Origin: Acinetobacter sp. XH1741
Lineage (GTDB): Bacteria; Pseudomonadota; Gammaproteobacteria; Pseudomonadales; Moraxellaceae
Length of the DNA stretch: 64,000 nucleotides
Reading direction: 5' to 3'
NCBI RefSeq assembly: GCF_041021895.1
Contig: NZ_CP157428.1
Span: 1,240,001-1,304,000 of the forward strand
Below the pieces are notes generated by a model, which did no database searches, was not told the origin of the DNA, and saw only the letters and a list, made by a program, of their open reading frames with translations. Made by a program: the position numbers and the translations under genes. The first letter of the stretch is position 1. The number at the start of each line of letters is the position of its first letter. Shown piece after piece: positions 2,563-52,797 of the stretch.

Positions 2563-2602
2563 TCCTTTCTTACTTATTTTCTTAGTTCAAAGGATTACAG
2601 CA

Positions 2603-5411: not shown

Positions 5412-5493
5412 TTGCCGAACAAAAATTAAGCTTAATGACATGCCATTGGTTTATACTGATGGCATTGTTTTTTGTGTCAGTTATGGTGCAAAG

Positions 5494-6435: not shown

Positions 6436-6514
6436 GATTTATAGATTAAAGGTGAACTTGAGTTTGGGTTTGCCTTCATTTTTTATTTTAAAGTAAACTG
6501 AGTCTTCATATATA

Positions 6515-6565: not shown

Positions 6566-6585
6566 TATAAAAATTAGTGAATATT

Positions 6586-6906: not shown

Positions 6907-6917
6907 AAGGATAAAGT

Positions 6918-7397: not shown

Positions 7398-7533
7398 GCT
7401 ATTTTTAGCGCTCGATTTTTTCAGGCTTTTCTAATAAGCTGTCAATACTGATATTTCATATAAAGCGGGTTTTATGACCTCGCTATTTTCTGAAATATTG
7501 ATCTTTTCATAACAAACTCTGGATGTTCTAAAA

Positions 7534-8754: not shown

Positions 8755-8770
8755 ATATTCAGTTATAATC

Positions 8771-8796
8771 AAGCCTCGACAAAGAGGCTTTTTTAT
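8771..8796 (+). terminator. Rho-independent terminator after argJ
   Basis: A 7-bp stem AAGCCTC/GAGGCTT with loop GACAAA is followed by a T run, 16 bases after the argJ stop. Confidence 0.88.
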
Positions 8797-8900
8797 TAGC
8801 CCCAACTTTTGATATTAAATGATTCAATCTACTAAATCATTTAAGCAGTAACGTTATATGCGAGCAGGTATGCCAGCATGAAGGATAGAGAAGACGTTTT

Positions 8901-9965
8901 ATGAGTGATGCGACTTTAATTGCCAACGATGCAAAAAACATTGTACAAGCGCATTTAGACCGTTTAGGTGAGCCAAAAGATAATCGCCTAAGTGAAGAAG
9001 CAAAACAACAAAAGTTTGCACAGATCGAAGCAGAGCTCAAAAAACGTGATGCTGTCCTTGTTGCTCACTATTATTGCGATCCGGATGTACAAGAGCTTGC
9101 TGAAAAAACAGGTGGATGCGTTTCTGATTCTTTAGAAATGGCTCGTTTTGGACGAGATCATGCAGCCTCTACACTAGTGGTTGCTGGTGTAAAGTTTATG
9201 GGAGAAACAGCTAAAATTCTGTCTCCTGAAAAAACAATTTTAATGCCAACACTTGAAGCAACCTGCTCACTCGACTTGGGCTGTCCAGTTGATGAATTCA
9301 CTGCATTTTGTGATCAACACCCTGACCATACCGTAGTGGTTTATGCCAACACATCGGCTGCTGTTAAAGCACGTGCAGATTGGGTAGTGACTTCAAGCTG
9401 TGCAGTTGAAATTGTTGAGCACCTAGATAGCTTGGGCGAAAAAATTATTTGGGCACCAGATCAGCACTTAGGCCGCTATATTCAAAAGAAAACTGGTGCT
9501 GACATGTTGCTTTGGGATGGCGCATGTATTGTCCATGAAGAATTCCGTGCACGTGGCATTGCCAACATGAAAGCCTTATATCCAGACGCTGCGGTATTGG
9601 TACATCCAGAGTCACCAGAGTCAGTTGTAGAAATTGCCGATGCGGTAGGTAGCACTTCTCAACTGATTAAAGCTGCGCAGACTTTGCCAAATGAAAGACT
9701 TATTGTGGCAACTGACCGCGGTATTTTCTACAAGATGCAGCAAGCGGTACCAAATAAGATTTTAGTTGAAGCGCCAACAGCAGGTGAGGGTGCAACTTGT
9801 CGTTCATGTGCTCACTGTCCGTGGATGGCAATGAATGAACTCGACGGAATTTTAGAAGTTTTACAAAAAGGTGATCAGGAAATACACGTTGATCCAGCAC
9901 TTGCTGAACGTGCCAAAATGCCTTTAGATCGAATGTTAGCCTTTAGTGCATCGTTAAAACGTTAA
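8901..9965 (+). CDS. nadA: Quinolinate synthase A
   Basis: NadA condenses iminoaspartate with dihydroxyacetone phosphate to quinolinate in NAD synthesis, using an oxygen-sensitive [4Fe-4S] cluster. The 354 residues fit the proteobacterial length. Visible signatures are [23 protein letters not shown] and [13 protein letters not shown], which contains candidate cluster ligands, with the [10 protein letters not shown] segment between. It starts after its own promoter region. An AAATGATT/AATCATTT inverted repeat at 8817-8842 lies in that region and could be an operator, which is unproven. Confidence 0.96.
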
Positions 9966-10031
9966 AAGTACGCAAAATGCTTGTTAAATATACATTTGAT
10001 AAGGATTTTTAACTTTTTTTGAGAATAGGTG

Positions 10032-10060
10032 TTGACGTCTGAGGGCGTCGCGCCTAGAAT
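10032..10060 (+). promoter_or_regulatory. Stable-RNA promoter for the tRNA array
   Basis: TTGACG and TAGAAT hexamers are separated by exactly 17 bases, with a GC-rich spacer part and discriminator. They lie about 45 bases before the first tRNA. This is the layout of a strong sigma-70 promoter for stable RNA. Confidence 0.8.
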
Positions 10061-10107
10061 GCACACCGTACCGCACGATGTGCGATACAGCAAAAGCTGA
10101 GATAGAT

Positions 10108-10184
10108 CGGAGCATAGCACAGCCTGGTAGTGCACCTGGTTTGGGACCAGGGGGTCGTAGGTTCGAATCCTACTGCTCCGACCA
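10108..10184 (+). tRNA. tRNA-Pro (anticodon TGG)
   Basis: A 77-base cloverleaf with acceptor CGGAGCA/TGCTCCG, T-loop GGTTCGAATCC and encoded CCA. The anticodon loop is TTTGGGA, giving TGG. First of four tRNAs and identical to the fourth. Confidence 0.97.
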
Positions 10185-10240
10185 CTTAAAATAATATTTT
10201 AAGATCGGCGAAGTATCGCATGATAAGCATCATCGGTTAA

Positions 10241-10317
10241 GCGCCTGTAGCTCAGTTGGATAGAGCATCCGCCTTCTAAGCGGATGGTCACAGGTTCGAA
10301 TCCTGTCAGGCGCGCCA
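10241..10317 (+). tRNA. tRNA-Arg (anticodon TCT)
   Basis: A 77-base cloverleaf with acceptor GCGCCTG/CAGGCGC, encoded CCA and anticodon loop CTTCTAA, giving TCT, which reads AGA/AGG codons. Confidence 0.97.
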
Positions 10318-10350
10318 TTCGGTAGCTTGGTACATAGAACTTATTTGATG

Positions 10351-10426
10351 GTGGATGTAGCTCAGTTGGTAGAGCCCTGGATTGTGATTCCAGTTGTCGC
10401 GGGTTCGAATCCCGTCATTCACCCCA
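10351..10426 (+). tRNA. tRNA-His (anticodon GTG)
   Basis: A 76-base cloverleaf with acceptor GTGGATG/CATTCAC, discriminator C, encoded CCA and anticodon GTG. Discriminator C opposite the post-transcriptional G-1 is normal for bacterial tRNA-His. Confidence 0.97.
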
Positions 10427-10430
10427 ATTT

Positions 10431-10507
10431 CGGAGCATAGCACAGCCTGGTAGTGCACCTGGTTTGGGACCAGGGGGTCGTAGGTTCGAATCCTACTGCT
10501 CCGACCA
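10431..10507 (+). tRNA. tRNA-Pro (anticodon TGG), second copy
   Basis: The 77 bases are identical to the tRNA-Pro at 10108-10184. Only four bases separate it from the tRNA-His. It looks like an intra-array duplication. Confidence 0.97.
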
Positions 10508-14657: not shown

Positions 14658-15878
14658 ATGAATCACATGGTGACAACAAAAAAAGCAAAGGTTCAATTTA
14701 ACTGGCAAGACCCATTTTTAATTGAGCAACAGCTTAGCCCAGATGAGCGCATGATTCGTGATGCGGCTCATGCCTATTGCCAAGAACGCCTGCAACCCCG
14801 TGTACTTGAACAATTCCGTCATGAAAAAACAGATCCATCTATTTTTCGTGAAATGGGAGAGCTTGGCTTACTGGGCCCAACCATCCCTGAGCAATATGGC
14901 GGCGCGGGTTTGAACTATGTGAGTTACGGTTTGGTTGCACGTGAAATTGAATATGTGGACTCGGGCTACCGCTCTATGGCGAGTGTGCAAAGTTCATTGG
15001 TGATGGTTCCGATTCATGAATTTGGTACCGAAGAGCAAAAGCAAAAGTACTTACCTAAATTAGCTACGGGTGAATACATAGGTTGTTTTGGTTTGACTGA
15101 ACCTGACCATGGTTCAGACCCGGGCAGTATGATTACCCGTGCTAAAAAAGTTGACGGTGGTTACCGTTTAAGTGGCGCAAAAATGTGGATTACCAACAGT
15201 CCAATTGCCGATGTATTTGTAGTTTGGGCAAAAGAAGTTTCTGCTGAAGGTAATGTAGGTGACATTCGAGGCTTTATTTTAGAAAAGGGTTGGGAAGGCC
15301 TATCTGCACCAGCAATTCATGGCAAGGTCGGTTTACGCGCATCGATTACAGGTGAAATTGTGATGGATAACGTATTTGTACCTGAAGAGAATGCATTCCC
15401 TGAAATTCGTGGTTTGAAAGGTCCATTTACCTGTCTAAATAGTGCCCGTTATGGCATTGCGTGGGGTGCAATGGGGGCTGCTGAGTTCTGCTGGCATACT
15501 GCCCATCAATACACTATGGACCGTAAACAATTTGGTCGTCCGTTAGCTGCAAATCAATTGATTCAAAAGAAACTGGCAGATATGCAAACTGAAATTGCAT
15601 TAGGCTTGCAGGCAGCATTACGTTTTGGCCGAATGAAAGATGAAGGCATTGCGTCAGTTGAAGGCACATCTTTGATTAAGCGTAACAACTGTGGAAAGGC
15701 GCTTGATATTGCTCGTATGGCACGTGACATGATGGGTGGAAATGGCATTAGTGACGAGTTTGGCGTGGCACGTCATTTGGTCAATCTTGAAGTTGTGAAC
15801 ACCTATGAAGGCACACATGACGTTCATGCCTTGATTTTAGGCCGTGCACAAACAGGTATCGCGGCATTTAGTAACTAA
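14658..15878 (+). CDS. gcdH: Glutaryl-CoA dehydrogenase
   Basis: This FAD-dependent acyl-CoA dehydrogenase oxidises and decarboxylates glutaryl-CoA to crotonyl-CoA in lysine and glutarate degradation. The 406 residues include the FAD motif [16 protein letters not shown], the [15 protein letters not shown] strand, the conserved [10 protein letters not shown] segment and the catalytic-base region [18 protein letters not shown]. The Arg in [11 protein letters not shown] is typical of GCDH. Its neighbours (CoA-transferase, carboxylate transporter, LysR) complete a glutarate uptake and activation module. Confidence 0.95.
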
Positions 15879-16105
15879 CTCATTCATTTTTAAAAGATTG
15901 AGGTGTTCTTTCGAGAGCACCTTTAGGGATTTTTACGCAAAAATTTATGGATAATGACAAGATTCATCGTAAGAATACTCATGTAAAGATGTGCCTCTGT
16001 GTACTTAAAACCAAATGTAAGATGATGAAAAGTATAGAAGATTAAGTCATGCAGAAAACATAAGTAGGCTACCGATGACTCATTTGGGAAAATGAGGAAC
16101 TAAAG

Positions 16106-17428
16106 ATGAACAATGACGTTCAAGTAATATCGAAAGAGTTAAAAATTACATTTCCAAGTAACCTTGGAACATATGAAAGAATTGGACCAAATACATGGAA
16201 ATGGGCGTTGTTATTTGCCTATTTTGCGATGGTGGTCGATGGCATTGATATTATGCTGCTGTCTTATAGCTTGACTAGTTTAAAGGCAGAGTTTGGTTTA
16301 AGTACCTTTCAAGCAGGTGCCTTAGGTAGTGCTTCTTTGGCGGGTATGGGTATTGGCGGTATTTTGGGTGGTTGGGCATGTGACAAGTTTGGTCGTGTAA
16401 GAACCATTGCTAACTCGGTAACCTTCTTTTCTGTAGCGACCTGTTTATTGGGCTTTACGCAAAGCTTCGAGCAATTTATGGCTTTACGTTTCATAGGTGC
16501 TTTGGGAATCGGAGCACTCTATATGGCCTGTAATACCTTAATGGCTGAATATGTGCCCACTACTTACCGTACAACAGTCTTGGGCACGTTACAGACGGGG
16601 CAAACCGTAGGTTATATTGCAGCGACACTCTTAGCTGGTGCGATTATTCCAGATCATGGCTGGCGCGTTTTGTTCTTCCTGACCGTAGTACCTGCGTTTA
16701 TTAATATTTTCCTGCAACGATTTGTACCTGAGCCAAAATCTTGGCAGCTCACCAAAATTGAAAGCTTGCAAGGCAATAGACAACCTAAAGAAATGGTGGT
16801 GGCTGAAAAGCCGAAAAGTGGCAGTATTTATAAGCAAATTTTTAATAACTTTAAGCACCGCAAAATGTTTTTGTTGTGGATGACCACAGCATTCTTCTTG
16901 CAGTTTGGTTATTACGGTATTAACAACTGGATGCCAAGTTATTTGGAAACAGAAGTGCATATGAACTTTAAAAACTTAACCAGTTATATGGTGGGTTCAT
17001 ATACAGCAATGATTCTAGGCAAAATTTTAGCAGGTTATCTTGCCGACAAATTTAACCGCCGTGCTGTTTTTGTGTTTGGAACAATTGCGAGCGCCGTGTT
17101 TTTACCAATCATTATTTTCTTCAATACCCCTGACAATATTTTGTATTTATTGATCACTTTTGGCTTCTTATATGGCATTCCATACGGTGTGAACGCGACC
17201 TATATGGCTGAAAGTTTTTCAACGGATGTGCGCGGAACAGCGATTGGCGGTGCCTATAACATTGGTCGTGTCGGGGCTGCGATTGCACCAGCCACCATTG
17301 GTTTCTTGGCATCGGGCGGTACATTTGCTATGGCCTTTATTGTGATGGGCGCTGCGTATTTTGTTGCGGGTGTATTGCCAGGCTTATTTATTAAAGATCG
17401 TCAGTACGATCCGCAAAAACAATCATAA
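16106..17428 (+). CDS. MFS carboxylate:H+ symporter (AAHS type), probable glutarate importer
   Basis: This inner-membrane major facilitator of 440 residues has twelve predicted helices. The DGIDIMLLSYSL motif in TM1 and the GWACDKFGRVRT loop between TM2 and TM3 mark the aromatic-acid:H+ symporter group. A second GYLADKFNRR loop lies between TM8 and TM9. It sits between gcdH and the CoA-transferase, so import of glutarate or a related dicarboxylate is inferred, although family members often carry aromatic acids. Confidence 0.85.
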   Translation: MNNDVQVISKELKITFPSNLGTYERIGPNTWKWALLFAYFAMVVDGIDIMLLSYSLTSLKAEFGLSTFQAGALGSASLAGMGIGGILGGWACDKFGRVRTIANSVTFFSVATCLLGFTQSFEQFMALRFIGALGIGALYMACNTLMAEYVPTTYRTTVLGTLQTGQTVGYIAATLLAGAIIPDHGWRVLFFLTVVPAFINIFLQRFVPEPKSWQLTKIESLQGNRQPKEMVVAEKPKSGSIYKQIFNNFKHRKMFLLWMTTAFFLQFGYYGINNWMPSYLETEVHMNFKNLTSYMVGSYTAMILGKILAGYLADKFNRRAVFVFGTIASAVFLPIIIFFNTPDNILYLLITFGFLYGIPYGVNATYMAESFSTDVRGTAIGGAYNIGRVGAAIAPATIGFLASGGTFAMAFIVMGAAYFVAGVLPGLFIKDRQYDPQKQS

Positions 17429-35506: not shown

Positions 35507-36044
35507 GAATAAATTTTTCTATATTAGTCTCTATCTTGTATTGTTTTTACTTGTTTTAATTTTTTTATGCACAAGCATTCCTACTGCTAAGTTAAAAATT
35601 TTTAATTTAACTCATCCAAATTGGATACAGTTAGAAAAATTTCAGATCTTAAATTATGAGATTAAGTGCTCAAGTCCTTGGGGACGAGGCGGGGATAAAA
35701 TGGCAAATCTAGTAGTTTCATATCAATATAATTATGGAAATAAAAGCTATTTTCAACAAGACCAAGTTTTTTATAGAATATATAAAACATATATTTTTGA
35801 ACGTTGTGATTCTTTTAAAGAAAAGAATAAACAGCTTTTTAATAAGGCTGTAAAAGATCAAACAATAAAATTATTTATAAATAAGAATTCCCCCAGTACA
35901 TCTAAGTTATTTCTTTCGAATAAAGAATTTAATTATAGATTATCTTGGTTAAGTATTTTCTTCTCAGAAATACAAGGAATTCTATTGACTTTACTTGCGA
36001 TTGTTTCTCTTTATAGTATTTATATGTTATTTAACCGTAGATAA
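35505..36044 (+). CDS. Membrane-anchored protein of unknown function, paralog B
   Basis: This 179-residue paralog of the protein at 34809 has the same two terminal membrane segments and the same HPNW...CSS core with a second Cys in ERCDSF. No Shine-Dalgarno sequence is evident, because the start codon lies at the edge of the heptamer array. The 3' end overlaps the convergent SEL1 gene by 18 bases. Expression may vary with the repeat number. Confidence 0.65.
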   Translation: MNKFFYISLYLVLFLLVLIFLCTSIPTAKLKIFNLTHPNWIQLEKFQILNYEIKCSSPWGRGGDKMANLVVSYQYNYGNKSYFQQDQVFYRIYKTYIFERCDSFKEKNKQLFNKAVKDQTIKLFINKNSPSTSKLFLSNKEFNYRLSWLSIFFSEIQGILLTLLAIVSLYSIYMLFNRR

Positions 36045-36827
36045 CCTTTCTAATGCTTGATCAGCCTCAGGGATATGGTTTTTTGAAGCTTCCATATACC
36101 AAAATTTAGCCTTTTCCAAATCAGGGAAAATATTTTCATACATATAAGCTAAATTATATTGTGCTTGAGGAAAGCCTTGCTGAGCTGCTTTAGTAAAATA
36201 CTCTAAAGCTTTCTTATTATCTTGGGTAACCCCTTCACCGTCTGCATACATATTACCTAAATTATAGGATGCTTGAGGAAGATTTTGCTGTGCTGCTTTT
36301 GAGAAAAGTTCTAAAGCTTTCGTATTATTTTGTGGGACACCATCTCCATTTGCATAAGCATTACCTAAATTATATTGAGCCTTAGCGTAACCTTGTTCAG
36401 TTGATAACTCATAAAGTTCTAGAGCTTTTTTTCTATCTTTTTGAATATAAAAACCTTTATCATACATGAGCCCAAGGTTATATTGCGCTGCTGCTAATTT
36501 TTGGTTAGCTGCCTTATCAAAATATTTAAAAGCTTTTTGATAATCTTGAGGTGTGCCTAGACCTTCGAAATACATTCCTCCTAGATCATTTTGCGCTTCA
36601 GCTAATCCTTGATCAGAGGCTTTTTGAAATAGCTCTAAAGCTTTTTGATAATTTTGCTTAACATCTTTACCTAAAAAATATTTCTGTCCTTCTTCATATA
36701 ATCTCAGAGCTTCTGAAGGTTTTTCTTGTACAAGATTTTGTGACGAAGGTTGCTTGGCACATCCAGATAGTAAAAAACTATTAGATAAAATTAAACACCC
36801 GGCAATAATCAATAATTTCGATTTCAT
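36027..36827 (-). CDS. SEL1/TPR-repeat lipoprotein
   Basis: The 266 residues begin with a lipoprotein signal ending in the lipobox LLSGC (Cys at residue 23). From about residue 40 there are six SEL1-type repeats of 36 residues (A-x-x-x-L-G-x-M-Y-x-x-G pattern, for example AQYNLGLMYDKGFYIQKDRKKALELYE). The protein should be anchored in the periplasm. Downstream of the candidate effector in the VgrG-tail operon, it fits the place of an immunity protein; periplasmic SEL1 proteins have this role in some type VI loci. Confidence 0.75.
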   Translation of the reverse strand: MKSKLLIIAGCLILSNSFLLSGCAKQPSSQNLVQEKPSEALRLYEEGQKYFLGKDVKQNYQKALELFQKASDQGLAEAQNDLGGMYFEGLGTPQDYQKAFKYFDKAANQKLAAAQYNLGLMYDKGFYIQKDRKKALELYELSTEQGYAKAQYNLGNAYANGDGVPQNNTKALELFSKAAQQNLPQASYNLGNMYADGEGVTQDNKKALEYFTKAAQQGFPQAQYNLAYMYENIFPDLEKAKFWYMEASKNHIPEADQALERLSTVK

Positions 36828-40282: not shown

Positions 40283-40498
40283 AAAACTTTTTTATTTCCT
40301 TCCAGAAGCTTGATTGAAAATAAAATAAATTTTACAACATTATTTAGATTTTCTAATTAATTGCATGTGCGATATTCATTTAACTAAAATAAATAATGAT
40401 TATTTAGCACAAGTAATACAATTGTAGTATTTCGTATTGCCATACCCATTACTATGATTAAGAAATATAACTTTAATTAATATAGATAACATTTAAAA

Positions 40499-41401
40499 AT
40501 GCTAGACAAAATTAAATGCGACGCCTTTTCGGCCGTTGTTGAAACAGGAAGTTTCGAAAAAGCTGGTAAAAAATTATGTGTATCTCAGTCAGCGATTTCT
40601 CAAAGAGTTAGATTACTAGAGGAGAGATTAGGAAATGTATTATTGGTGAGAGAAAGACCATGTAAACCAACACCATTTGGAGCTGAGTTATTTGCTTATC
40701 TTCAGCGAGTGTCTTTATTAGAGAATGTTTTTTTAAAATCGGTCATCGATAATAATAAATTTAAGCCGTTACCGATTGCTGCGAGTATTGGTACATTTGA
40801 GTCATTGCTTTTCCCAATATTAGCTAAGTACTGTCTGTCGGAGGCTATTACAATAGACGTAAAGATTGATACGCTTTGTAATACCATCGAACTCTTAAAA
40901 AGAGGAGAGGTTCAGGCTTGCATTACTTCAGAATCTGAGATAATCAGAGGGTGTACAAGTGTATATTTAGGCAATATGATTTATTGCCTAGTTGCCTCAG
41001 AGAATTTTATTAATAAATGGTTTAAAAATGGAATTAATAGAGAGAATCTGCGTTTAGCTCCTTTAGTTTTATTTAATGAAAATGAAAGAATATATTTCGA
41101 TTTTTTAGAATCTAACTTCGGACTCAAAAAATCAATGATTCCTTTTCATATTATTCCTTCAACTGACTCTTATATTTCTGGGCTTGCTTGTGATATGGGT
41201 TACGGAATAATGCCTATATGCAAGATAAATCAGGATTTATCGAATCAGGGCATAAAGGAAATTTCAAAGGAATATAGGATTAAGATTCCATTATACTGGC
41301 ATCAGCTTTCTTATCTTTCTCCAGCAGTTTCAATAATGAATGATATTATTATTAAGCATTCAACAACAATCTTGGCTACCGTAGGGAATGAAGATGCTTA
41401 A
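40499..41401 (+). CDS. ArgP/LysG-type LysR regulator
   Basis: This 300-residue LysR regulator has the ArgP-like start FSAVVETGSFEKAGKKL followed by CVSQSAISQRVRLLEE. Members of this subgroup usually sense basic amino acids and control their export or synthesis. Its end overlaps the ATPase gene at 41388 by 14 bases, so the two are translationally coupled. It may sense the substrate or product of the biosynthesis-like cluster next door. Confidence 0.85.
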   Translation: MLDKIKCDAFSAVVETGSFEKAGKKLCVSQSAISQRVRLLEERLGNVLLVRERPCKPTPFGAELFAYLQRVSLLENVFLKSVIDNNKFKPLPIAASIGTFESLLFPILAKYCLSEAITIDVKIDTLCNTIELLKRGEVQACITSESEIIRGCTSVYLGNMIYCLVASENFINKWFKNGINRENLRLAPLVLFNENERIYFDFLESNFGLKKSMIPFHIIPSTDSYISGLACDMGYGIMPICKINQDLSNQGIKEISKEYRIKIPLYWHQLSYLSPAVSIMNDIIIKHSTTILATVGNEDA

Positions 41402-42476
41402 GCATGAGGGTCAAAGTCCACTCGAGATATACAACTCTATGATTGATAATGGCGTTGTTCTTGCAGATCCGTCTCAGCGACAAGCTATTGAAACATTAAA
41501 TGAGATTTGGAATAAAATTGAAAACCAGTCTAGTCATTTCTTCAGTCCCCAGATTAAAGGTCTGTACATGTGGGGAAGTGTAGGAACAGGCAAGACATGG
41601 ATTATGGATTTATTCTATAACTCTCTTAATTTTAAAAAGAAAATGAGAGTGCATTTTCATCATTTCCTAAAAGATGTTCACAAGCAACTTATTGCCTATC
41701 GGGGAAATAAAGATCCTTTAAAGCTGATTGCTAATGACATAGCAAGCAACTATAAGCTCATTTGCTTTGATGAGTTTTTTGTATCAAATGTTGCCGACGC
41801 AATGATACTTTCAAATCTATTTAATCTGCTATTTTCAAAGAAAGTGATATTGGTTGCTACCTCGAATATTGATCCGGAAGATCTTTATAAAGATGGTTTA
41901 AATCGCGATAGATTTTTAGAGACCATAGATCATATCAATAAGAATTGCACGGTCTTGAAAATCGGTAATCAACTCGATTACAGAACCATCAAAGAAAGCA
42001 ACGCCAATGACCATTTCTATAGATTTCCATTAAATGAAGAATCCGAACAATGGCTTCATTCGGTTTACCAGCAGCTTACACATAATCAGAAAGAACTCAA
42101 GACGAGCATCATGATCAACCATAGATCAGTCGAGGTTAAATCTTGCTATAAGAATGTAATTTGGTTCGACTTTGAAAACCTTTGCCGAGAAGCCAGAAGC
42201 CCAGCTGATTATATAGAGATAGCAACGCAATATGACTATGTGCTCATCAGTGGAATTGGTGATTTAACAGATAGAATTTATGATACCGTGAGACGTTTTA
42301 TTTATTTGATTGATGAACTTTATGATCAAAAAATCAAACTATACTTTGCTGCTTCACAACCATTAAATCAATTATATAAAGGCGAGAGGCTTAAATTTGA
42401 ATTTCAAAGAACGTATTCACGATTACAGGAAATGCAAAGCATAAGTTATAACAAGGAACTTCAGGAGCCTGCTTGA
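41388..42476 (+). CDS. ZapE/AFG1-like ATPase
   Basis: This 362-residue AAA-type P-loop ATPase has Walker A GSVGTGKT at residues 63-70 and Walker B LICFDEFF near 124, with sensor-like ATSN near 160. These are features of the ZapE/LACE1 (AFG1) family, which acts on membrane proteins or cell division. It starts inside the LysR gene and is the only non-metabolic protein in this cluster. A housekeeping zapE is expected elsewhere in the genome, so this is probably an accessory paralog. Start 41388 or 41394. Confidence 0.85.
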   Translation: MKMLKHEGQSPLEIYNSMIDNGVVLADPSQRQAIETLNEIWNKIENQSSHFFSPQIKGLYMWGSVGTGKTWIMDLFYNSLNFKKKMRVHFHHFLKDVHKQLIAYRGNKDPLKLIANDIASNYKLICFDEFFVSNVADAMILSNLFNLLFSKKVILVATSNIDPEDLYKDGLNRDRFLETIDHINKNCTVLKIGNQLDYRTIKESNANDHFYRFPLNEESEQWLHSVYQQLTHNQKELKTSIMINHRSVEVKSCYKNVIWFDFENLCREARSPADYIEIATQYDYVLISGIGDLTDRIYDTVRRFIYLIDELYDQKIKLYFAASQPLNQLYKGERLKFEFQRTYSRLQEMQSISYNKELQEPA

Positions 42477-42515
42477 ATATATGACTATGCTTTGCATGAC
42501 TAACACGCAGTTGGA

Positions 42516-43043
42516 TTAAGCAAAAAAGTACGATTTCTCTGGAAATTTTGACTTATATCCATTCTGCAAAAATACTTCTAATGCTTGAATAATGTCGGCT
42601 TGTTCCTCGGGACTAATTTCCTTTTTTCTATTGTTTTTAAAGTCTTCAATAATATATTGAATGTCAGCGTTATAGTCCTTAATAAAAATATCTGAACTCA
42701 GTCGAGTTTTAGGTTCAATATTGGCAAGTAGTGGTTCTATTTCTTCAATATTTTTAAAAAATTCAATACTAAACTCTCCAATTTGAAGAATGATATAACG
42801 GCTTTCAATCTTAATATCTTTATTTGCAAATCTGTGTCTAACATTGGGAGGAATTTGAAAAAACTCCCCCCGATTAACAATATATTTCTGCTGCAAATCT
42901 GGTAACTCAACCTGAATAGCACCTTTTGAGCAGTACACAAGATCGGGGATATGAGTATGCTTATGAAACGGAAACAGGCTATCTTTTAAGTTGCACAGCA
43001 CTATCCTAATATCGTGGTCATAACAAAACTGATGCATTTCCAT
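42516..43043 (-). CDS. Cupin-domain protein (AraC N-terminal type)
   Basis: This 175-residue protein has a cupin core, with FPFHKHTHIPDLVYCSKGAIQVEL and GEFFQIPPNVRHRF carrying His residues that could bind metal. The C-terminal part is helical without an AraC DNA-binding domain. An AGGAAAA site stands 7 bases before the start. It is the last gene of the four-gene operon, so it may be an enzyme or a binding protein of the pathway. Confidence 0.7.
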   Translation of the reverse strand: MEMHQFCYDHDIRIVLCNLKDSLFPFHKHTHIPDLVYCSKGAIQVELPDLQQKYIVNRGEFFQIPPNVRHRFANKDIKIESRYIILQIGEFSIEFFKNIEEIEPLLANIEPKTRLSSDIFIKDYNADIQYIIEDFKNNRKKEISPEEQADIIQALEVFLQNGYKSKFPEKSYFFA

Positions 43044-43063
43044 TGATCATTTTCCTTGTCCGA

Positions 43064-44776
43064 TTAACTAATTTTATAAAGTTGTTCTGGAGTAAATATG
43101 GGTTCACTAAGATGCTTTTGAAACAATTCAACCCAATCAGTCGAGACAGAATCAGCCGCATCAACAATCGCTTTGGAAAAGTTACGTTCATTCTGCCAGT
43201 ATCGGGTAAGCACACCGAAAGAGTAAAAATACTCCGAGGGCTTTATAAACCCTCTACGGTTTTCCATCAGTTTGTAGGTCTCGAAACCATCTAGCATCAA
43301 TCCTCCAGTGTTATATTCATCCTCCATATTCGGGACAATATTCTTTTGCTCTAACAATGATTTAACCAATGCTGAGGGATGTTTATAGATATCAAAGTCT
43401 TGACTGATCGTATTAACCACAAGATCAAAATCAAATGAATGCCCTAGATCATCAGTGAGCTGTACATGGCTATCCATTATTTTTAGAGGTTTACTGTTAT
43501 AGCCAAGTTTGAGTGATTGAAGTAAACCAGCTTCAAATAGGCATTTCAGCTTTTGTGCATTTTCCAGTGGGATTGGTACGGCAAGGCGAATGAATAAGTG
43601 ATCAAATTCTTGGTCGTAGCGTTCTTTATCATGACTGCTTAAATAACGGTAAAACTTCATTCTTCGTACTTTAAGAATGATCATATTAATTAAGTCATTA
43701 AGCTCTTGGTGCTCCAGATCATATTTCAACTTTTCATAAGCATTTGCGAATTTCAAGTTGCACAAATCATTGAATGACACTTCACCGTTAGTTGCATTTT
43801 TAAGCTCAAGATCAAGCAGATAAAGAATATCATTTAGTGATAAAACCTGATTTAAGTGCTGCTGCAACTCATGGAAAGATTCATGAGTGAAATACTTAAA
43901 GTCATAGTTAGGTTTATTGCCTCGTACCGCTGGGAAGTATCCCGAACGACTAACGATATAGATTTTGAAGTTTTCATCTGTCACGGCCTTCTGATAGCTT
44001 GAGAAGGCTCCATTTTCAGTTGCAAACGATCCTTCACTAAAAAGAGTGATGACCGTATCAACACCACTAGGGCCCATACCACGTACAAGAACATTTGGCT
44101 TATGATCTTGTCTTATAATGTCATTAAGTCTCATTAAGACTTTTTGAAAAGGGTATGGCTTCACGAATAAACTGTGCTTGGAGTCTAAACTACTTGCAGT
44201 CCAGTGCCCGATAGTGAGTAAAAGCTTAGAAAATCCTTTTAATTCAATTTTTTGATTTGAATTTTGATTCTTGATAACTAAATTATAACCGCCTTTAGTT
44301 TCATAGCCATCGATAGCTTCATAGCCATTGTAAACTTCAACTTTAATGTGATTTGATTTGGCTAATTCTAAGTATTTTTTAAACCTATCATTGAGATAGA
44401 TACCAAACAAAGCTCTAGGGTAAAAAGCGTTAGGATCTGGGAAGGCTTGCGATTCACCAGCTAAAGATTTCTTATAAACTAGGTGGGGGTAATGAGTCAT
44501 CAGGTGATTTTTATTTTCTGCCATCCAATCCACAAAGTCGTTATCCCAAAGCGACATTGAATGGGCAGGGTTATTACACAAATGGCCAGCCAATAATTCG
44601 TCTTTGTCGTATGGATTCCCATGTCCCATAGATTCACGCATTTCAACAAGAGTAATCGAGTATGACTTATGATCAATCTCTTGATTCAGTAATTTTTTTA
44701 CAAAGCTGATGAAGGTACACGTACCTGAGAATCCCATTCCAATGATACAGAACTTTTTCAAAGTAATATCGTCCAT
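43064..44776 (-). CDS. FAD/NAD(P)-binding oxidoreductase
   Basis: The 570-residue protein begins with a Rossmann motif CIIGMGFSGTCTFISFVKKLL and has a second nucleotide-binding stretch near LVRGMGPSGVDTVITLFSEG. It fits the FAD-NAD(P)-binding (NAD_binding_9) family, which often appears in secondary-metabolite clusters as an oxygenase or oxidase. No Shine-Dalgarno sequence precedes its ATG, and a strong hairpin separates it from the upstream aminotransferase gene. Confidence 0.8.
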   Translation of the reverse strand: MDDITLKKFCIIGMGFSGTCTFISFVKKLLNQEIDHKSYSITLVEMRESMGHGNPYDKDELLAGHLCNNPAHSMSLWDNDFVDWMAENKNHLMTHYPHLVYKKSLAGESQAFPDPNAFYPRALFGIYLNDRFKKYLELAKSNHIKVEVYNGYEAIDGYETKGGYNLVIKNQNSNQKIELKGFSKLLLTIGHWTASSLDSKHSLFVKPYPFQKVLMRLNDIIRQDHKPNVLVRGMGPSGVDTVITLFSEGSFATENGAFSSYQKAVTDENFKIYIVSRSGYFPAVRGNKPNYDFKYFTHESFHELQQHLNQVLSLNDILYLLDLELKNATNGEVSFNDLCNLKFANAYEKLKYDLEHQELNDLINMIILKVRRMKFYRYLSSHDKERYDQEFDHLFIRLAVPIPLENAQKLKCLFEAGLLQSLKLGYNSKPLKIMDSHVQLTDDLGHSFDFDLVVNTISQDFDIYKHPSALVKSLLEQKNIVPNMEDEYNTGGLMLDGFETYKLMENRRGFIKPSEYFYSFGVLTRYWQNERNFSKAIVDAADSVSTDWVELFQKHLSEPIFTPEQLYKIS

Positions 44777-44787
44777 AAAAATATAAA

Positions 44788-44816
44788 TTCAGGAAGTTAA
44801 AACTTAACTTCCTGAA
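44788..44816 (-). other. Perfect 13-bp intercistronic hairpin
   Basis: TTCAGGAAGTTAA pairs perfectly with TTAACTTCCTGAA across a 3-base loop, 9 bases after the aminotransferase stop and 11 bases before the FAD gene start. It lacks a T run. An mRNA processing or partial termination role is likely. Confidence 0.85.
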
Positions 44817-44825
44817 TAATATGAG

Positions 44826-46106
44826 TTAGTTCAATTTCTGAAGGGCTTCTTTAATACGTGCTGCAGCTGCCTTTAGAGTTACTGGATCACGTCCACAATT
44901 CATGCGAATGTAATGTCGGAGGCTATCGATGTTTTCACCAAAATGCATGCCTCCAATAGAAGCAACTTTTGCTGTTTCCAAAAGATATTGATCGGCTGAA
45001 TCAAATCCTAACTCTTGGATTTTGTCGCCATACTTTGACAAGTCCAAGAATAGGAAAAATCCACCTTCAGGCTCAGTTACTTCTAAACCAGTGCAGTTTT
45101 TCAAGTCTTCAATGAATGTTTGCATGTTCTGTCTTGCAACTACCGCACGTTTCTTTGCAACGTCATCCATGTATTCTTGCATTGCTTCATGTGTCGCAAT
45201 TTGGGCATAAGTCGAAGCAAACGAGTTTAAGTTCACCTGTACCTTTTCCATAACTTTAATCAGTTTGTCCGAAGCACAAATATATCCAGATCGGTCACCA
45301 TGCATTCCATAGGTTTTACCGGGACCAGTGATATAAATGGTGTAGTCCCACATAGAGTGTGTTTGGTCTTTAAACTGCTGCGTAATATTTGAAATGTTTG
45401 CAGGCTTATTATTCAAAATATGTGATTCATACGGACAATCAAAAAGCACATAGATTGGGCTTAAACCTTTTGATAAACGTTCGGCATTGGCAGTCAAAAT
45501 CACTTTCGAAATCGACTCTAATTCATCACGAGTGTAAATTTTGCCAGAAGGGTTTAGGCAGTCACCAAGAATGATAATTTTGGTCTTATCTGTAATGGTT
45601 TTTTCTAATTCAACTACATCAATCGCTTGGTTATAAAAGTCTTTGACATAGATTGGTTTAGCTTTACCTAAGTGCAATTCAATCATGTCTGCGTAATGAG
45701 GCCAGTTTGGTACTGGATAAATCACTTCATCGTCTGGATTTAGAAGTGTATGGAATACCACAGTGATAGCACCTTTAATACCGCCAGGAGTGACCATGAT
45801 TTCAGTATCTGGATTGAAACTGATATCACGTAAACGCTTTACACGCTCAGCAATAGACTTCCGTAAGAAAGGGAAGCCTTTAACTGGTGCAAACTCATGG
45901 ATAATTGCAGCATTATTTGAAATATAACTCTTAACTGCATCATCAATGCCGCTATTGGTCTTTTCATCTAAAGTACCAATACTTAAATCAATGACTTGAT
46001 CATCTGCGCCAGACTTTTTATTTAATTCTAAAATTTTTGCCTTAGTTCCGTGTGTAATTGATTCACGTAAATTCAAGGCTGCTTGTGAAATACCTAAGTT
46101 TTGCAT
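44826..46106 (-). CDS. Class I/II PLP-dependent aminotransferase
   Basis: This 426-residue fold-type I enzyme has the Schiff-base Lys at K264 in YITGPGKTYGMHGDRSGYI, N185 in GDCLNPSGKIY and D223/Y226 in LFDCPYESHIL. These are the aspartate aminotransferase-family residues that bind PLP. The N-terminal arm and the GIKGAI turn support a class I/II enzyme, which may transaminate or decarboxylate an amino acid substrate. It is second in the operon after the HDO protein. Confidence 0.85.
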   Translation of the reverse strand: MQNLGISQAALNLRESITHGTKAKILELNKKSGADDQVIDLSIGTLDEKTNSGIDDAVKSYISNNAAIIHEFAPVKGFPFLRKSIAERVKRLRDISFNPDTEIMVTPGGIKGAITVVFHTLLNPDDEVIYPVPNWPHYADMIELHLGKAKPIYVKDFYNQAIDVVELEKTITDKTKIIILGDCLNPSGKIYTRDELESISKVILTANAERLSKGLSPIYVLFDCPYESHILNNKPANISNITQQFKDQTHSMWDYTIYITGPGKTYGMHGDRSGYICASDKLIKVMEKVQVNLNSFASTYAQIATHEAMQEYMDDVAKKRAVVARQNMQTFIEDLKNCTGLEVTEPEGGFFLFLDLSKYGDKIQELGFDSADQYLLETAKVASIGGMHFGENIDSLRHYIRMNCGRDPVTLKAAAARIKEALQKLN

Positions 46107-46131
46107 TGTGAAATCTCAAAATCCGTTTTAG

Positions 46132-46914
46132 TTAAAGTGATACAGCTTGATCAAACATTGCATTCCACATCTTAAGCTGGGCTTTCAATGTTTCATTTGC
46201 ACCAAACTTAATCTCATCAAGGTCTTCTTGGTTATTACAGTTGTTATGGACACACTGTTTAGCATCTTGAGCGTGACGATCTTCGACGCCATTTTCGATA
46301 TGGGCGTTAAAATAGACCTCAACTTTCTTAATGAATTCACTTGGATCAAGGTTTTTGTTATTGAATCTGAACGCTTCACGGAATACGGTAAGCATCTTAT
46401 CAGCATGATTTTCTAGGGCCATGACTGCTCCCAACATGCGAGGATAACTACCCGTAATCAAACCTTGGATAGTATCTCGATACTGCAATGTCTCTGCGAT
46501 GATTCGATCACTATTCTTAGCCTGTTGAACCTTCATCTCTGGAAGATTGTATTCTGCGGCACCAAATATATTGAGCGCATTCTCCATAAAGATTTCATGG
46601 CACTTGGCTTTTTCACCCATACCAGTTTCTTCACTTAAAATGTGGGTGAATAGGACTAGAGTGTCCATATCGTTTTCAAAAGCAGATCGCGAACATACAT
46701 GAGCAATCCCTTTTACAGTTAGCTCGGTACGATAGAAGAAATTGTCACGAAATAAGATATATGATTCTGGCGTCCATGAAGTAGAAGTCAAATGCTTGAA
46801 ATAATTGTTTTGGAAAATTTCATGATCATCCATTTTAGTAATGAATTCATCTAACTCAGCACTAATCGTTTCTTTACAATCAACATTTCCATTGATGATT
46901 ACTTTAGAGTTCAT
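46132..46914 (-). CDS. Heme-oxygenase-like diiron (HDO) protein
   Basis: This 260-residue all-helical protein has the metal-ligand spacing of the HDO/iron-containing redox family: E96 and H106 in SEETGMGEKAKCHEIF, E168 (or H170) in ALENHAD, H205 in YFNAHIENG, and E211/D212 with H214 in VEDRHAQD. HDO enzymes use O2 for lyase, N-oxygenation or C-C cleavage reactions on amino acids and fatty acids. It is the first gene of the operon, divergent from the TSUP exporter. Substrate is unknown. Confidence 0.75.
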   Translation of the reverse strand: MNSKVIINGNVDCKETISAELDEFITKMDDHEIFQNNYFKHLTSTSWTPESYILFRDNFFYRTELTVKGIAHVCSRSAFENDMDTLVLFTHILSEETGMGEKAKCHEIFMENALNIFGAAEYNLPEMKVQQAKNSDRIIAETLQYRDTIQGLITGSYPRMLGAVMALENHADKMLTVFREAFRFNNKNLDPSEFIKKVEVYFNAHIENGVEDRHAQDAKQCVHNNCNNQEDLDEIKFGANETLKAQLKMWNAMFDQAVSL

Positions 46915-47094
46915 TCTTGAATTATCCTTTTATAATGAAATTTATTTTTTACAGCGAAATTTTTATAACAAAGAAATAATCAAAAAAAATGAGTATTAAA
47001 TATTTTAATGTTTGATAAAATTATCTAATATTTATGTGATAATTTATATTTTAGTGTAGTTTGGCTTGGTTAAAAATCAAAAATGGAATTTTAA

Positions 47095-47853
47095 ATGTAT
47101 CTTTTAGAAGACTTTTCAGTACTGCAACTTTCAATAATGTTAATAACAATAGTGTGCTCTTATATTATTTTTGGAATGGTGGGTTTTGGAACTGCATTAA
47201 TCGCGAGTCCTGTATTACTTAACTTTTTACCTCTCTCACAAATTATTCCATTATTAGCCTTACTAGATATGTTCGCTGCCATTTCAAATGTCATTAAAGA
47301 TGGTAAGAAGGCAGACTTTTCTGAATTAAAATTTCTAATACCACTTATGTTTGTCGGTAGTTTTCTTGGCTTTATACTGCTGATGAGAGTTAATGCAAGT
47401 TACGCACTTCTAGCATTTGGTATATTTACTCTTTTATATGCGGCTTACTCATTAAGTGGCTTTAAGCCACAGAAAAAACTAGAGAAAAAATTTGTTTTTC
47501 CTTTTGGATTATCTGGTGGCTTCTTAGGTGCCATGTTTGGTAGCGGTGGGTTTTTATATGCGATTTACCTCAATGGACGAATCGAAACCCCAGAAAAAAT
47601 CCGTGTCACTCAAACTACATTAATTGGATGCAGCACGGTTTTTCGAGTCATTCTATTTACTACAGCAGGCGTGTATTTTTCGGATAACTTATTGTCACTT
47701 GCACTTCTGTTTATCCCATCGATGTTGATAGGTGCGTTCATTGGCAAGCGAATTACACTCAAATTGTCTAAGCAGCAATTCTTGAAAATTATTAATTTTA
47801 TTGTACTGCTATCTGGAATATCGATTATTGTTAAATACGCTTTAACAGTATAG
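47095..47853 (+). CDS. TSUP (TauE/SafE) family membrane transporter
   Basis: This 252-residue protein has about eight helices in two halves, with the typical FGMVGFGTALIASPVLLNFLPL first half and GLSGGFLGAMFGSGGFLYAIYL second half. TSUP proteins export sulfonates, sulfite or organic anions. It is divergent from the HDO operon and shares a 180-base promoter region with it, so it probably exports the product or an intermediate. Confidence 0.85.
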   Translation: MYLLEDFSVLQLSIMLITIVCSYIIFGMVGFGTALIASPVLLNFLPLSQIIPLLALLDMFAAISNVIKDGKKADFSELKFLIPLMFVGSFLGFILLMRVNASYALLAFGIFTLLYAAYSLSGFKPQKKLEKKFVFPFGLSGGFLGAMFGSGGFLYAIYLNGRIETPEKIRVTQTTLIGCSTVFRVILFTTAGVYFSDNLLSLALLFIPSMLIGAFIGKRITLKLSKQQFLKIINFIVLLSGISIIVKYALTV

Positions 47854-48051
47854 GTCCATTATTTTGGGTGCCTAAACTAATTAATTTGGATGTTAATAAT
47901 TTTACTATTAAATTTATTTTATTTTTTAATAATGAAGGATGAGATATATATACTGCTTTATAGGAAATATTAATCAATACATTGATGCCTGTAGTGAAAT
48001 AAAATCAATTAATTAATATCTATTTATAAATTTTAATAAATACAAGCCAAG

Positions 48052-48080: not shown

Positions 48081-48101
48081 CTTAATTAACTAAGTCGAAA
48101 C

Positions 48102-48140
48102 TTACCAGCTTAATGCACCACCAGTTTGGTAGTCAGTTAA
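48102..48140 (-). pseudogene. Short duplicate of the 3' end of nrdB
   Basis: On the minus strand the sequence encodes [11 protein letters not shown] and a stop, identical at the protein level to the last residues of NrdB at 51514-51550. It differs by one silent base. No other nrdB sequence is nearby. This is a footprint of an insertion or recombination at the nrdB end. Confidence 0.9.
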
Positions 48141-50303: not shown

Positions 50304-51104
50304 TTAGATGAGATGAATTTCGTGATTTACTTCTGCAATTTCCCCCGTATCATCACCAAAAAATATATTAATAATTGAATGATTGATATCTTGATTGGAA
50401 TCTTTGATTGCAGAAAGTGCAAAGCGTCCTTGGGTCACCTTGGTTTTGTCTGAAAGATCAGACCAATCAATAATGATAATATTGGTCACATCAGCAAATC
50501 GTTGTTTAACTTTAGTCAGAACATCTTTGTAGTGTTGAGACATAATGGCAGGACATTTGGCTGTAAATGTATGCCCTTGGCGACGTGCCATAACAAACGA
50601 ATGATTTTGATCTGTTAATTTAATTTCAGTATGGGTTTCTTCTTCATTGAAAATAAAAGGACTCTTATCTTTTTTAATTATTTTTTTGATACTATCAATT
50701 GCTCTATTTTTACTGGTTCGTTCAGAAAAAATAAGTACTTTATCTCGTTTGATCAGTTTGCTATTCGATAAAATAGATTCCAGTTCGCTAGGTAATTCTG
50801 ATCTTATTGAATCTTGCTTCGTTTCTGTTGATAAGATTGTACAACTCTCTTCTGAACAAGCTAAACCCAGATCATCAATTAAAATGCCATAAGTGAGCTT
50901 AATGTCTCTTTGATATTTTTTTATAATCATTGAGCCAAGTGCTATGGCATCATTTAATGTATTAATTGCAAAATCATCTGCACCAAAATTATGACTAAAA
51001 TGTCCACCTTCAAGATAAATTACAGTTTTATCATTAATTTGTTGATAAATACTATCAACAACAGTCATAACATTACTTAAATAATCTTTATCATATAAAT
51101 TCAT
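50304..51104 (-). CDS. Unknown protein of the desulfurase-exporter cassette
   Basis: The 266 residues show no signal peptide or membrane segment and no family I recognise. There are acidic and beta-rich parts (KTVIYLEGGHFSHNFGADDF, ITNIIIIDWSDLSDKTKVTQ, INIFFGDDTGEIAEVNHEIHLI) and a few Cys residues (CSEESC). It is the first gene of the operon and is followed after 39 bases by the desulfurase. It could be the sulfur acceptor enzyme, which is only inferred from position. Confidence 0.6.
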   Translation of the reverse strand: MNLYDKDYLSNVMTVVDSIYQQINDKTVIYLEGGHFSHNFGADDFAINTLNDAIALGSMIIKKYQRDIKLTYGILIDDLGLACSEESCTILSTETKQDSIRSELPSELESILSNSKLIKRDKVLIFSERTSKNRAIDSIKKIIKKDKSPFIFNEEETHTEIKLTDQNHSFVMARRQGHTFTAKCPAIMSQHYKDVLTKVKQRFADVTNIIIIDWSDLSDKTKVTQGRFALSAIKDSNQDINHSIINIFFGDDTGEIAEVNHEIHLI

Positions 51105-51471: not shown

Positions 51472-51513
51472 ATCAATGACAGTTTATGTGTCACTTGATG
51501 GTAACTCTTAAAC

Positions 51514-52797
51514 TTACCAGCTTAACGCACCACCAGTTTGGTAGTCAGTTACGCGAGTTTCGAAGAAGTTCTTCTCTTTACGTAAGTCCATCATCTCAGA
51601 CATCCACGCAAATGGATTCGTTACACCAGCAAATTGCTCTGGTAAACCTAACTGAGATAAACGACGGTTACAGATGAATTTCAAGTATTCTTCCATCATG
51701 CTTGCGTTCATACCCAATACACCGCGTGGCATCGTGTCACGTGCATATTCGATTTCAAGCATTGTGCCTTCAAGAATCATTTGAATGACTTCTTGTTGGA
51801 ACTCGGCAGTCCAAAGGTGAGGGTTCTCAATCTTGATTTGGTTAATCATGTCGATACCAAAGTTCAAGTGCATAGACTCATCACGCAAGATGTATTGGAA
51901 CTGCTCAGCAACACCGTTCATCTTGTTACGACGACCCATACTTAAAATTTGAGTAAAGCCACAGTAGAAGAAGATCCCTTCGAGTACACAGTAGAATGCG
52001 ATCAAGTTACGAAGTAAACGTTGGTCGTTTTCAGGAGTACCTGTGTGGAAAGTAGGGTCACTTAAAGATTGAGTGTACTTGAGGCCCCAAGATGCTTTAC
52101 GCGCAACAGATGGAATCTCGCGGTACATGTTGAAGACTTCGCCTTCATCCATACCTAAAGATTCGATACAGTATTGGTAAGCGTGAGTGTGAATTGCTTC
52201 TTCAAACGCTTGACGCAAGATGTACTGACGGCATTCAGGGTTAGTAATGTGACGGTAAATCGCCAATACCAAGTTATTTGCAACCAAAGAGTCCGCAGTA
52301 GAGAAGAAACCTAAAGAACGCATAACAATAGTACGCTCATCTTCAGTTAAGCCATTTTCAGACTTCCAAAGTGCGATGTCATGGTTCATGTTAACTTCTT
52401 GCGGCATCCAGTGGTTTGCACACCCGTCAAGATATTTCTGCCAAGCCCATTCGTATTTAAACGGTACAAGTTGGTTCAAGTCCGCACGACAGTTAATCAT
52501 CGCTTTGTCGTCAACTTGAACGCGTTGTGCGCCCATTTCTAGCTCTTCAAGGCCAGGAGCAACGTCTAAGTGTTCTAGGGCTGCAGAGGCTCTAGCCATC
52601 GTATCGGAGGCAACTGTTGGTCGCACGGAATGGGTTCCAGCGGATTGTGGAGCTGCCATGCTCGGCGATGATGGCTGCGCAGTAGATACATTCTGCGAAT
52701 CAGACGTTTTTTCCGGTTGGATGGGCGCAGACTTGTGTTCAGGTGCAGCCGGTTTTTGCGAATCATCTTCAAAATCGTCCCAACTAAGGATAGACAT
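51514..52797 (-). CDS. nrdB: Ribonucleotide reductase class Ia, beta subunit
   Basis: NrdB holds the diiron-tyrosyl radical that starts reduction of ribonucleotides. The ferritin-like fold has diiron ligands in [12 protein letters not shown] and [10 protein letters not shown]. The N terminus (52797 downward) has a long Pro/Ala/Gln-rich segment of about 75 residues ([16 protein letters not shown]) that is longer than in E. coli. The ATG at 52797 ([11 protein letters not shown]) is preferred to the upstream frame at 52836. It follows nrdA and a small membrane gene on the same strand. Confidence 0.93.

What the first reader, a model, noticed from the sequence alone, without database searches (positions are those of the whole stretch)
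40499..47853. Undescribed biosynthesis-like cluster: HDO protein, aminotransferase, FAD protein, cupin, TSUP exporter
Four minus-strand genes form a tight operon with an O2-using HDO protein first. A divergent exporter and an ArgP-like regulator coupled to a ZapE-like ATPase flank it. HDO, PLP and FAD enzymes together usually remodel an amino acid into a small bioactive product. I do not recognise a known pathway with this set, and the ArgP-like sensor hints at a basic amino acid substrate.
Basis: partly seen in the sequence, partly recalled or inferred. Interest (0 to 1): 0.8.

Follow-up and report, generated by a model that had tools for sequence, protein, structure and literature searches.

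The report
Mobile orphan amino-acid oxidation gene cluster
A few Acinetobacter species carry a small gene set, seldom found elsewhere, that probably builds and exports an unusual molecule made by oxidising an amino acid; the product is unknown and the idea can be tested in a laboratory strain.

Summary
In detail: seven genes at the stated places that behave as one unit. HDO occurs in 4 of 175 Acinetobacter genomes; the same four alone have a full FAD-gene match. dN/dS is 0.02-0.22 for all seven genes. HDO-AT-FAD-cupin is collinear on a Vibrio plasmid, followed by a TauE-family gene; HDO-AT recurs in Nocardia and Streptomyces. So the core is HDO plus PLP enzyme. The FAD protein's wider family is nearest, among solved structures, to an L-aspartate N-hydroxylase; the HDO keeps a complete metal-ligand pattern. 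Best reading: a carrier-free pathway that N-oxidises an amino acid, with TSUP export under a LysG/ArgP-type regulator. The substrate is unknown, and C-C cleavage is not excluded. The ArgP hint is only partly supported: the regulator goes with the exporter half. A second ZapE lies with a TSUP gene in 6 of 6 Acinetobacter genomes that have one, but 0 of 15 further TSUP places have ZapE. The searches made found no paper on this set. Both structure models were unusable.

The parts
46132..46914 (-). HDO (heme-oxygenase-like dimetal oxidase), 260 aa, first gene of the operon
   Evidence: PF14518 41.2 bits; E96, H106, E168, H205, E211, H214 invariant in 7 of 7 sequences, 4 of them Acinetobacter
44826..46106 (-). 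Fold-type I PLP enzyme (class I/II aminotransferase-like), 426 aa
   Evidence: PF00155; best NCBIfam model GntC 175.6 bits, below cut-off 415; N185, D223, Y226, K264, R272, R401 invariant in 4 of 4 lineages (residue roles recalled)
44787..44817 (-). Terminator/attenuator-like hairpin between AT and FAD genes
   Evidence: kept in 4 of 4 Acinetobacter copies, fragments fold at about -17 kcal/mol
43064..44776 (-). FAD/NAD(P)-binding protein (PF13454), N-monooxygenase-like, 570 aa
   Evidence: wider family profile reaches L-Asp N-hydroxylase 8CP2 at E 1.8e-16, close profile only E 0.97
42516..43043 (-). Single-domain cupin, 175 aa, with H27-x-H29-x4-D34 ... H70
   Evidence: PF07883; the four residues invariant in 4 of 4 sequences, 3 of them Acinetobacter
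47095..47853 (+). TauE/SafE (TSUP) exporter, 252 aa, divergent from HDO
   Evidence: PF01925 110.9 bits
46915..47094 (.). Shared spacer between HDO and TSUP, 16.7% G+C, aligned in 4 of 4 Acinetobacter copies
40499..41401 (+). LysG/ArgP-type LysR regulator, 300 aa
   Evidence: NF002964 260.5 bits, cut-off 197; 3isp, 6xtv
41388..42476 (+). ZapE2, second ZapE/AFG1-type ATPase, 362 aa, start overlaps the LysR end
   Evidence: NF040713 409 bits; another ZapE at 47% elsewhere in the genome
40340..48037 (.). Whole conserved unit as delimited by DNA alignment to G062 (to 48029) and G142 (to 48037)

Best explanation
The locus is a small, horizontally spread, carrier-free biosynthetic cluster that makes an N-oxidised amino-acid derivative and exports it. 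Shown: HDO and PLP enzyme genes are the conserved pair; FAD and cupin genes extend it in Acinetobacter and Vibrio; in Acinetobacter a LysG/ArgP-type regulator, a second ZapE ATPase and a TSUP exporter belong to the same unit. Inferred: (1) the HDO uses a dimetal centre and O2 to N-oxygenate an amino acid, most likely the side chain of a basic one; (2) the PLP enzyme transaminates, lyses or cyclises it; (3) the FAD protein, related to a flavin N-hydroxylase, adds a second N-oxidation; (4) the metal cupin finishes the rearrangement; (5) the regulator senses a basic amino acid or the product and switches on TSUP export, ZapE2 serving the exporter. The order of steps 2-4 is a guess.
For: Collinear enzyme genes in Vibrio; HDO-AT followed by a gene 80% alike in Nocardia and Streptomyces, which I read as a membrane protein. 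E-H-E-H-E-H ligand pattern; its first pair E96-x9-H106 lies in EExGxGE-x4-H, as in an own-genome protein whose numbering, shifted by 2, fits DtpC E143, H153, H232 (mutants in PMC13232832, passages). FAD family best solved relative is an L-Asp N-hydroxylase (8CP2 identified in PMC10404684), and two of the three distant family members used are homologous to the window protein by profile (99.7%). HDO N-oxygenation is established for lysine (HrmI/BelK) and methylarginine (SznF) (PMC13108848 section 8). LysG/ArgP-type regulator. dN/dS 0.02-0.22 in 21 comparisons.
Against: No substrate or product evidence. The HDO matches no solved structure by sequence beyond E 0.73 to an unnamed protein and its model was unusable, so N-oxygenation is not separated from C-C cleavage. 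Only the first ligand pair is anchored: the DtpC residue H232 does not align with a ligand candidate of the window HDO. The close FAD profile gives only E 0.97 to 8CP2; the strong match needs members at 21-23% identity; a SidA pair is not matched. FAD, cupin and TSUP have no match beside the Nocardia and Streptomyces pair, and the Vibrio TauE is only remotely alike. Of 15 further TSUP places, 1 has N-monooxygenase genes of the Mycetohabitans type and 0 have ZapE.
Confidence: 0.5

Rival explanations
1. Same kind of cluster, but the HDO does C-C cleavage, desaturation or C-N ring closure (as BesC, UndA, PolF), giving an olefinic or cyclic non-protein amino acid that the PLP and FAD enzymes process.
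For: The family's common ligand set serves these reactions too (PMC13108848 sections 4 and 7); a PLP enzyme gene follows HDO directly in all four lineages.
Against: Does not by itself account for an FAD protein whose wider family is nearest to an N-hydroxylase.
Confidence: 0.25
2. Organosulfur route: a cysteine-derived sulfonate or sulfonamide made with cupin and HDO and exported by TSUP, whose known substrates include sulfite and sulfoacetate (recalled).
For: TauE-family genes in both Acinetobacter and Vibrio; cupin with a complete metal-ligand pattern.
Against: LysG/ArgP-type regulator points to basic amino acids; apart from the TauE-family exporter, none of the seven genes is of a sulfur-specific family; the cupin's best, weak, solved matches are quercetinases (E 0.0012 and weaker).
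Confidence: 0.12
3. A catabolic or detoxifying operon that degrades an unusual amino acid and pumps out a toxic end product.
For: Regulator and exporter resemble an export-relief module.
Against: Several probable O2-using oxidases in a rare, sporadic unit is more typical of specialised biosynthesis (general knowledge).
Confidence: 0.1
4. Unrelated neighbours, no pathway.
For: None beyond the hairpin between AT and FAD.
Against: Collinearity in Vibrio, joint presence in 4 of 175, purifying selection.
Confidence: 0.03

Closest known systems
Arginine-derived N-oxygenation pathways: SznF (streptozotocin, recalled) and azomycin (RohS; RohR and partners recalled)
   Same: HDO plus a PLP enzyme whose best NCBIfam model is the arginine cyclodehydratase GntC in 4 of 4 homologues; SznF also joins an HDO and a cupin (PMC13108848 section 8)
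   Different: GntC cut-off not met (157.2-175.6 against 415 bits), and its lead over the next model is only 0.5-17 bits; cupin is a separate protein; an FAD protein is present instead of the other azomycin enzymes
HrmI/BelK lysine N-oxygenases
   Same: HDO on a basic amino acid is the proposed chemistry
   Different: Window HDO has no sequence match to a solved HDO; substrate unknown
L-aspartate N-hydroxylase (FzmM/CreE family, 8CP2)
   Same: Best solved structure for the wider FAD family, E 1.8e-16, aligned in N- and C-terminal parts
   Different: Only E 0.97 from the close homologues; none of the other six genes is lyase-like by family, unless the PLP enzyme acts as one
LysG-LysE / ArgP-ArgO export systems (pairings recalled)
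   Same: LysG/ArgP-type regulator in one unit with an exporter
   Different: Exporter is TSUP; a ZapE paralogue is coupled to the regulator gene
   Same: Related TSUP (about 53% and 45%), transaminase plus amine N-monooxygenase, ZapE in L049
   Different: Other enzymes, different LysR, no HDO match (for L072; annotation for L049)

Membership tests
Heme-oxygenase-like dimetal oxidases (HDO) | PF14518 domain above curated cut-off | tested here: met
   41.2 bits, cut-off 28.9
Heme-oxygenase-like dimetal oxidases (HDO) | E-H-E-H-(D/E)-H metal ligands (motif from PMC11363339, passages) | tested here: met
   E96, H106, E168, H205, E211, H214 invariant in 7 of 7; assigned by pattern, only the first pair anchored to a tested HDO
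Heme-oxygenase-like dimetal oxidases (HDO) | Seven-helix fold with bound metals | tested here: inconclusive
   Model mean pLDDT 40.8, helical but unusable
SznF-type N-oxygenase | Seventh ligand (extra Glu, 3H/4C) | tested here: inconclusive
   E64 and E95 invariant in 7 of 7, but no structure places them
SznF-type N-oxygenase | HDO fused to a C-terminal cupin | tested here: not met
   HDO and cupin are separate genes
GntC/RohR arginine cyclodehydratase | NF041364 above cut-off | tested here: not met
   175.6 bits against 415
L-aspartate N-hydroxylase (FzmM/CreE) | Sequence relationship over the whole protein | tested here: inconclusive
   E 0.97 with the close profile; E 1.8e-16 with the wider profile
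L-aspartate N-hydroxylase (FzmM/CreE) | Converts L-Asp to nitrosuccinate | not testable with these tools
   needs an enzyme assay
ArgP/LysG regulator | NCBIfam ArgP/LysG subfamily model | tested here: met
   NF002964 260.5 bits, cut-off 197; the stricter NF009888 and TIGR03298 not reached (264.3 of 297; 253.6 of 273.55)
ZapE | NF040713 above cut-off | tested here: met
   409 bits, cut-off 140
ZapE | Single housekeeping copy of the genome | tested here: not met
   Extra copy; another ZapE lies elsewhere in the same genome
TauE/SafE (TSUP) | PF01925 above cut-off | tested here: met
   110.9 bits, cut-off 32.6
TauE/SafE (TSUP) | Transports a small anion out of the cell (recalled) | not testable with these tools
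   needs a transport assay

The most novel reading that the evidence does not exclude
Two new things at once: an HDO and an FAD N-hydroxylase relative oxidise nitrogen in one free amino acid without any carrier protein, giving a new nitro, nitroso or N-N amino acid; and the export half is a reusable module in which a second copy of the cell-division ATPase ZapE serves a TSUP exporter under an ArgP-type sensor.
Probability: 0.25. Interest if true: 0.8.

Novelty: new variant of a known kind. Interest (0 to 1): 0.6.

Why it matters
HDOs are a fast-growing enzyme family with about a dozen characterised members (PMC13108848 section 4) and reactions that are hard to predict. A small carrier-free cluster with its own exporter is a compact setting in which a new HDO reaction could be found, and a laboratory strain should suffice. 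The ZapE link would give a duplicated cell-division ATPase a testable role in membrane export.

Tried and rejected
AlphaFold of HDO and FAD protein from four near-identical sequences each: mean pLDDT 40.8 and 31.3, so no fold search was made. HDO in viral contigs: 39 pattern matches, no relative. Genome-contig scan: 14 pattern matches, 1 relative, A. seifertii NIPH 973. FAD against a pair of SidA-type oxygenases by profile: no match. Anti-phage library: no match for 5 of 5 proteins given. Altemicidin (cupin SbzM) considered as a model: PMC6331615 passages gave no support; its HDO role was only recalled. Diazo clusters with a MetRS-cupin fusion (PMC13061610 passages): the window cupin is a 175-aa single domain. 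Chance neighbours: rejected. The idea that TSUP relatives generally travel with N-oxidation genes was not borne out: 1 of 15 further places (which looked only for homologues of the window's and the Mycetohabitans genes).

Limits: the class, phylum and order draws overlap and were not de-duplicated; only genomes of the window's own phylum were drawn, so presence in actinomycetes is known only from plasmid records. Paper searches listed but did not open most papers.
Full report
WHAT IS THERE. The window lies in an Acinetobacter genome close to A. seifertii (G000, 4.0 Mb in 4 contigs; HDO 99.6-100% identical to that of A. seifertii NIPH 973). The seven genes are confirmed. Two halves meet tail to tail at 42476/42516. 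The left half reads +: a LysG/ArgP-type LysR whose last 14 nt overlap the start of a ZapE-type ATPase. The right half reads -: HDO, aminotransferase-like PLP enzyme (AT), FAD protein, cupin; the TSUP gene diverges from HDO across a 180-nt spacer of 16.7% G+C. A perfect 14-pair hairpin with a T-rich tail lies between AT and FAD and is kept in 4 of 4 Acinetobacter copies. The genes of the copies are 92-99% identical, so this conservation is weak evidence, and terminator-like sites are not in excess in the region (5 against 3.9, sd 2.1, in shuffles). That HDO-AT is transcribed more than FAD-cupin is an inference.

IT IS ONE UNIT. HDO occurs in 4 of 175 genus genomes. The FAD search finds 5 of 175: the same four over the full length, and G100 with 43 bits over part of the protein. 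DNA alignment delimits the unit to about 40340-48037 in G062 and G142. In the four genomes it lies at or near the 3' end of nrdB; in the window a further 3.4-kb block stands between. Ten genomes without the unit, chosen out of 171, all have nrdB. Against the window, the three other copies give dN/dS 0.02-0.22 in 21 of 21 gene comparisons (zapE2 of A. seifertii over its first 627 nt only). So the genes are kept by selection in a unit that is otherwise sporadic.

HOW FAR IT SPREADS. Apart from the own genome, HDO was found in 0 of 368 class genomes and 0 of 298 phylum genomes at E 1e-20, and 0 of 243 order genomes at E 1e-3 (overlapping draws in which the three sister genomes did not show up). 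Of 72,556 plasmid records three hold it: Vibrio maritimus (59%), Nocardia sp. NBC_01327 (50%) and Streptomyces sp. NBC_01237 (51%). The Nocardia protein as query adds one record at 25%. Vibrio has HDO-AT-FAD-cupin, then a TauE-family gene and an O-methyltransferase, all on one strand; its TauE is only remotely like the window's. In Nocardia and Streptomyces HDO-AT is followed by a gene whose products are 80% identical; Pfam names nothing above cut-off for the Nocardia one, and I read it as a YczE-like membrane protein (recalled label, no test). No match to the window's FAD, cupin, TSUP, LysR or ZapE was found near these two pairs. HDO and AT genes overlap by 8 nt in Vibrio and, as annotated, in Nocardia. 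The constant part is therefore HDO + PLP enzyme.

THE ENZYMES. HDO: the pattern E96-x9-H106 ... E168 ... H205-x5-E211-x2-H214 is invariant in 7 of 7 sequences, four of them Acinetobacter, and fits the E-H-E-H-(D/E)-H motif of the family (PMC11363339, passages). The first pair sits in EETGMGE-x4-H, like EELGLGE-x4-H of an own-genome protein whose residues 145, 155 and 234, read from an upstream start, fit DtpC E143, H153 and H232 with a shift of 2; these were shown to matter for DtpC (PMC13232832, passages). In the same alignment DtpC H232 does not fall on a ligand candidate of the window HDO, so the last three ligands rest on pattern alone. AT: catalytic residues invariant in 4 of 4 lineages (roles recalled). 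Its best NCBIfam model is GntC in all four homologues, at 157.2-175.6 bits against a cut-off of 415, ahead of the next model by 0.5-17 bits, while the best solved structures are aspartate aminotransferases; transaminase, lyase and cyclase all remain open. FAD protein: PF13454. The close profile reaches 8CP2 at E 0.97 only, behind a flavin monooxygenase at 0.15. A profile with three distant PF13454-type proteins (21-23% identity; homology of two of them to the window protein supported at 99.7%) reaches 8CP2 at 1.8e-16, ahead of a flavin-containing monooxygenase at 1.7e-6 and a lysine N6-monooxygenase, MbtG, at 0.0021. 8CP2 is an L-aspartate N-hydroxylase (PMC10404684, passages). Cupin: H-x-H-x4-D ... 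H, invariant in 4 of 4, three of them Acinetobacter, so probably metal-binding.

THE EXPORT HALF. The regulator's best solved relatives are 3isp (Rv1985c) and LysG 6xtv. The same genome has another ArgP-like gene (35%) divergent from a gene that I read as LysE-like. All 173 genus genomes searched have ZapE; six show more than one match: the four cluster genomes, G090 and G119 (in G086 the extra copy is in two pieces). In all six the extra copy lies with a TSUP gene: in the same unit in four, directly beside it in G090 (60% and 67% to the window's genes) and G119 (44% and 38%). A Mycetohabitans megaplasmid has a 53% TSUP in a cluster with a HpaB-like hydroxylase, Rieske oxygenase, transaminase, SidA-type N-monooxygenase and a ZapE (that ZapE is 30% to the window's; one of nine Mycetohabitans records was opened). 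Against: in a 388-genome draw 15 further TSUP places were found, all were fetched with 15-18 kb, 0 have a ZapE match and 1 has the N-monooxygenase cluster. So an extra ZapE predicts TSUP in this genus, but TSUP does not predict ZapE.

READING. The common theme is oxidation of an amino acid, most likely on nitrogen: a dimetal oxidase, a flavoprotein with N-hydroxylase kinship, a PLP enzyme and a metal cupin, with a basic-amino-acid-type sensor on the exporter side. HDOs do this to lysine (HrmI/BelK) and methylarginine (SznF) (PMC13108848 section 8), but they also cleave C-C bonds (section 7), and nothing here separates the two by test. I put the N-oxidation reading at about one half.

KNOWN OR NEW. 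The searches listed no paper that I could recognise as describing this set; they cover open-licence PMC papers only, and their hits were seen as listings. Papers seen otherwise: PMC13108848, abstract and sections 4, 7, 8 and 11; PMC13232832, PMC10404684, PMC11363339, PMC10367076, PMC6331615 and PMC13061610, passages. All enzyme families are known; the combination and its export half I did not find described, so I call it a new variant of a known kind.

Noticed in passing
L008 about 14905-16213 (A. seifertii NIPH 973): A transposase-bearing insertion of about 1.3 kb splits zapE2 in A. seifertii, while HDO, AT, FAD and cupin matches there are full length.
   Followed up: partly
window 48098-48139 and 51510-51551: A 42-nt direct repeat (98%) of the nrdB 3' end flanks a 3.4-kb block with EamA, a NifS-like gene and an ORF; it looks like an insertion at an nrdB 3'-end hot spot next to the cluster.
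   Followed up: partly
window 50304-51104 (-): 266-aa ORF without a Pfam or NCBIfam match at E 0.001, beside a NifS-like gene and an EamA exporter gene.
   Followed up: no
L049 7903-17369 and L072 about 1694-10436: A second TSUP-linked cluster: Rieske oxygenase, diaminobutyrate-type transaminase, Lys/Orn-type N-monooxygenase, FMN-binding protein, tautomerase; with HpaB and ZapE in Mycetohabitans, with PEP-mutase-like and DAO genes in the other.
   Followed up: partly
L006 1055-9438 (Nocardia plasmid): The HDO-AT pair lies downstream of genes for a DegT-type aminotransferase protein, a formyltransferase family protein and an aldo/keto reductase; whether they belong to one cluster is open.
   Followed up: no
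window 36027-36827 (-): ORF that I read as a Sel1-repeat lipoprotein, with 71-72% DNA matches near the same hot spot in relatives.
   Followed up: no
L027 (G000:C1:2844981): Apparent orthologue of DtpC, the desiccation-tolerance HDO of A. baumannii; positions of E143, H153 and H232 fit with a shift of 2.
   Followed up: partly
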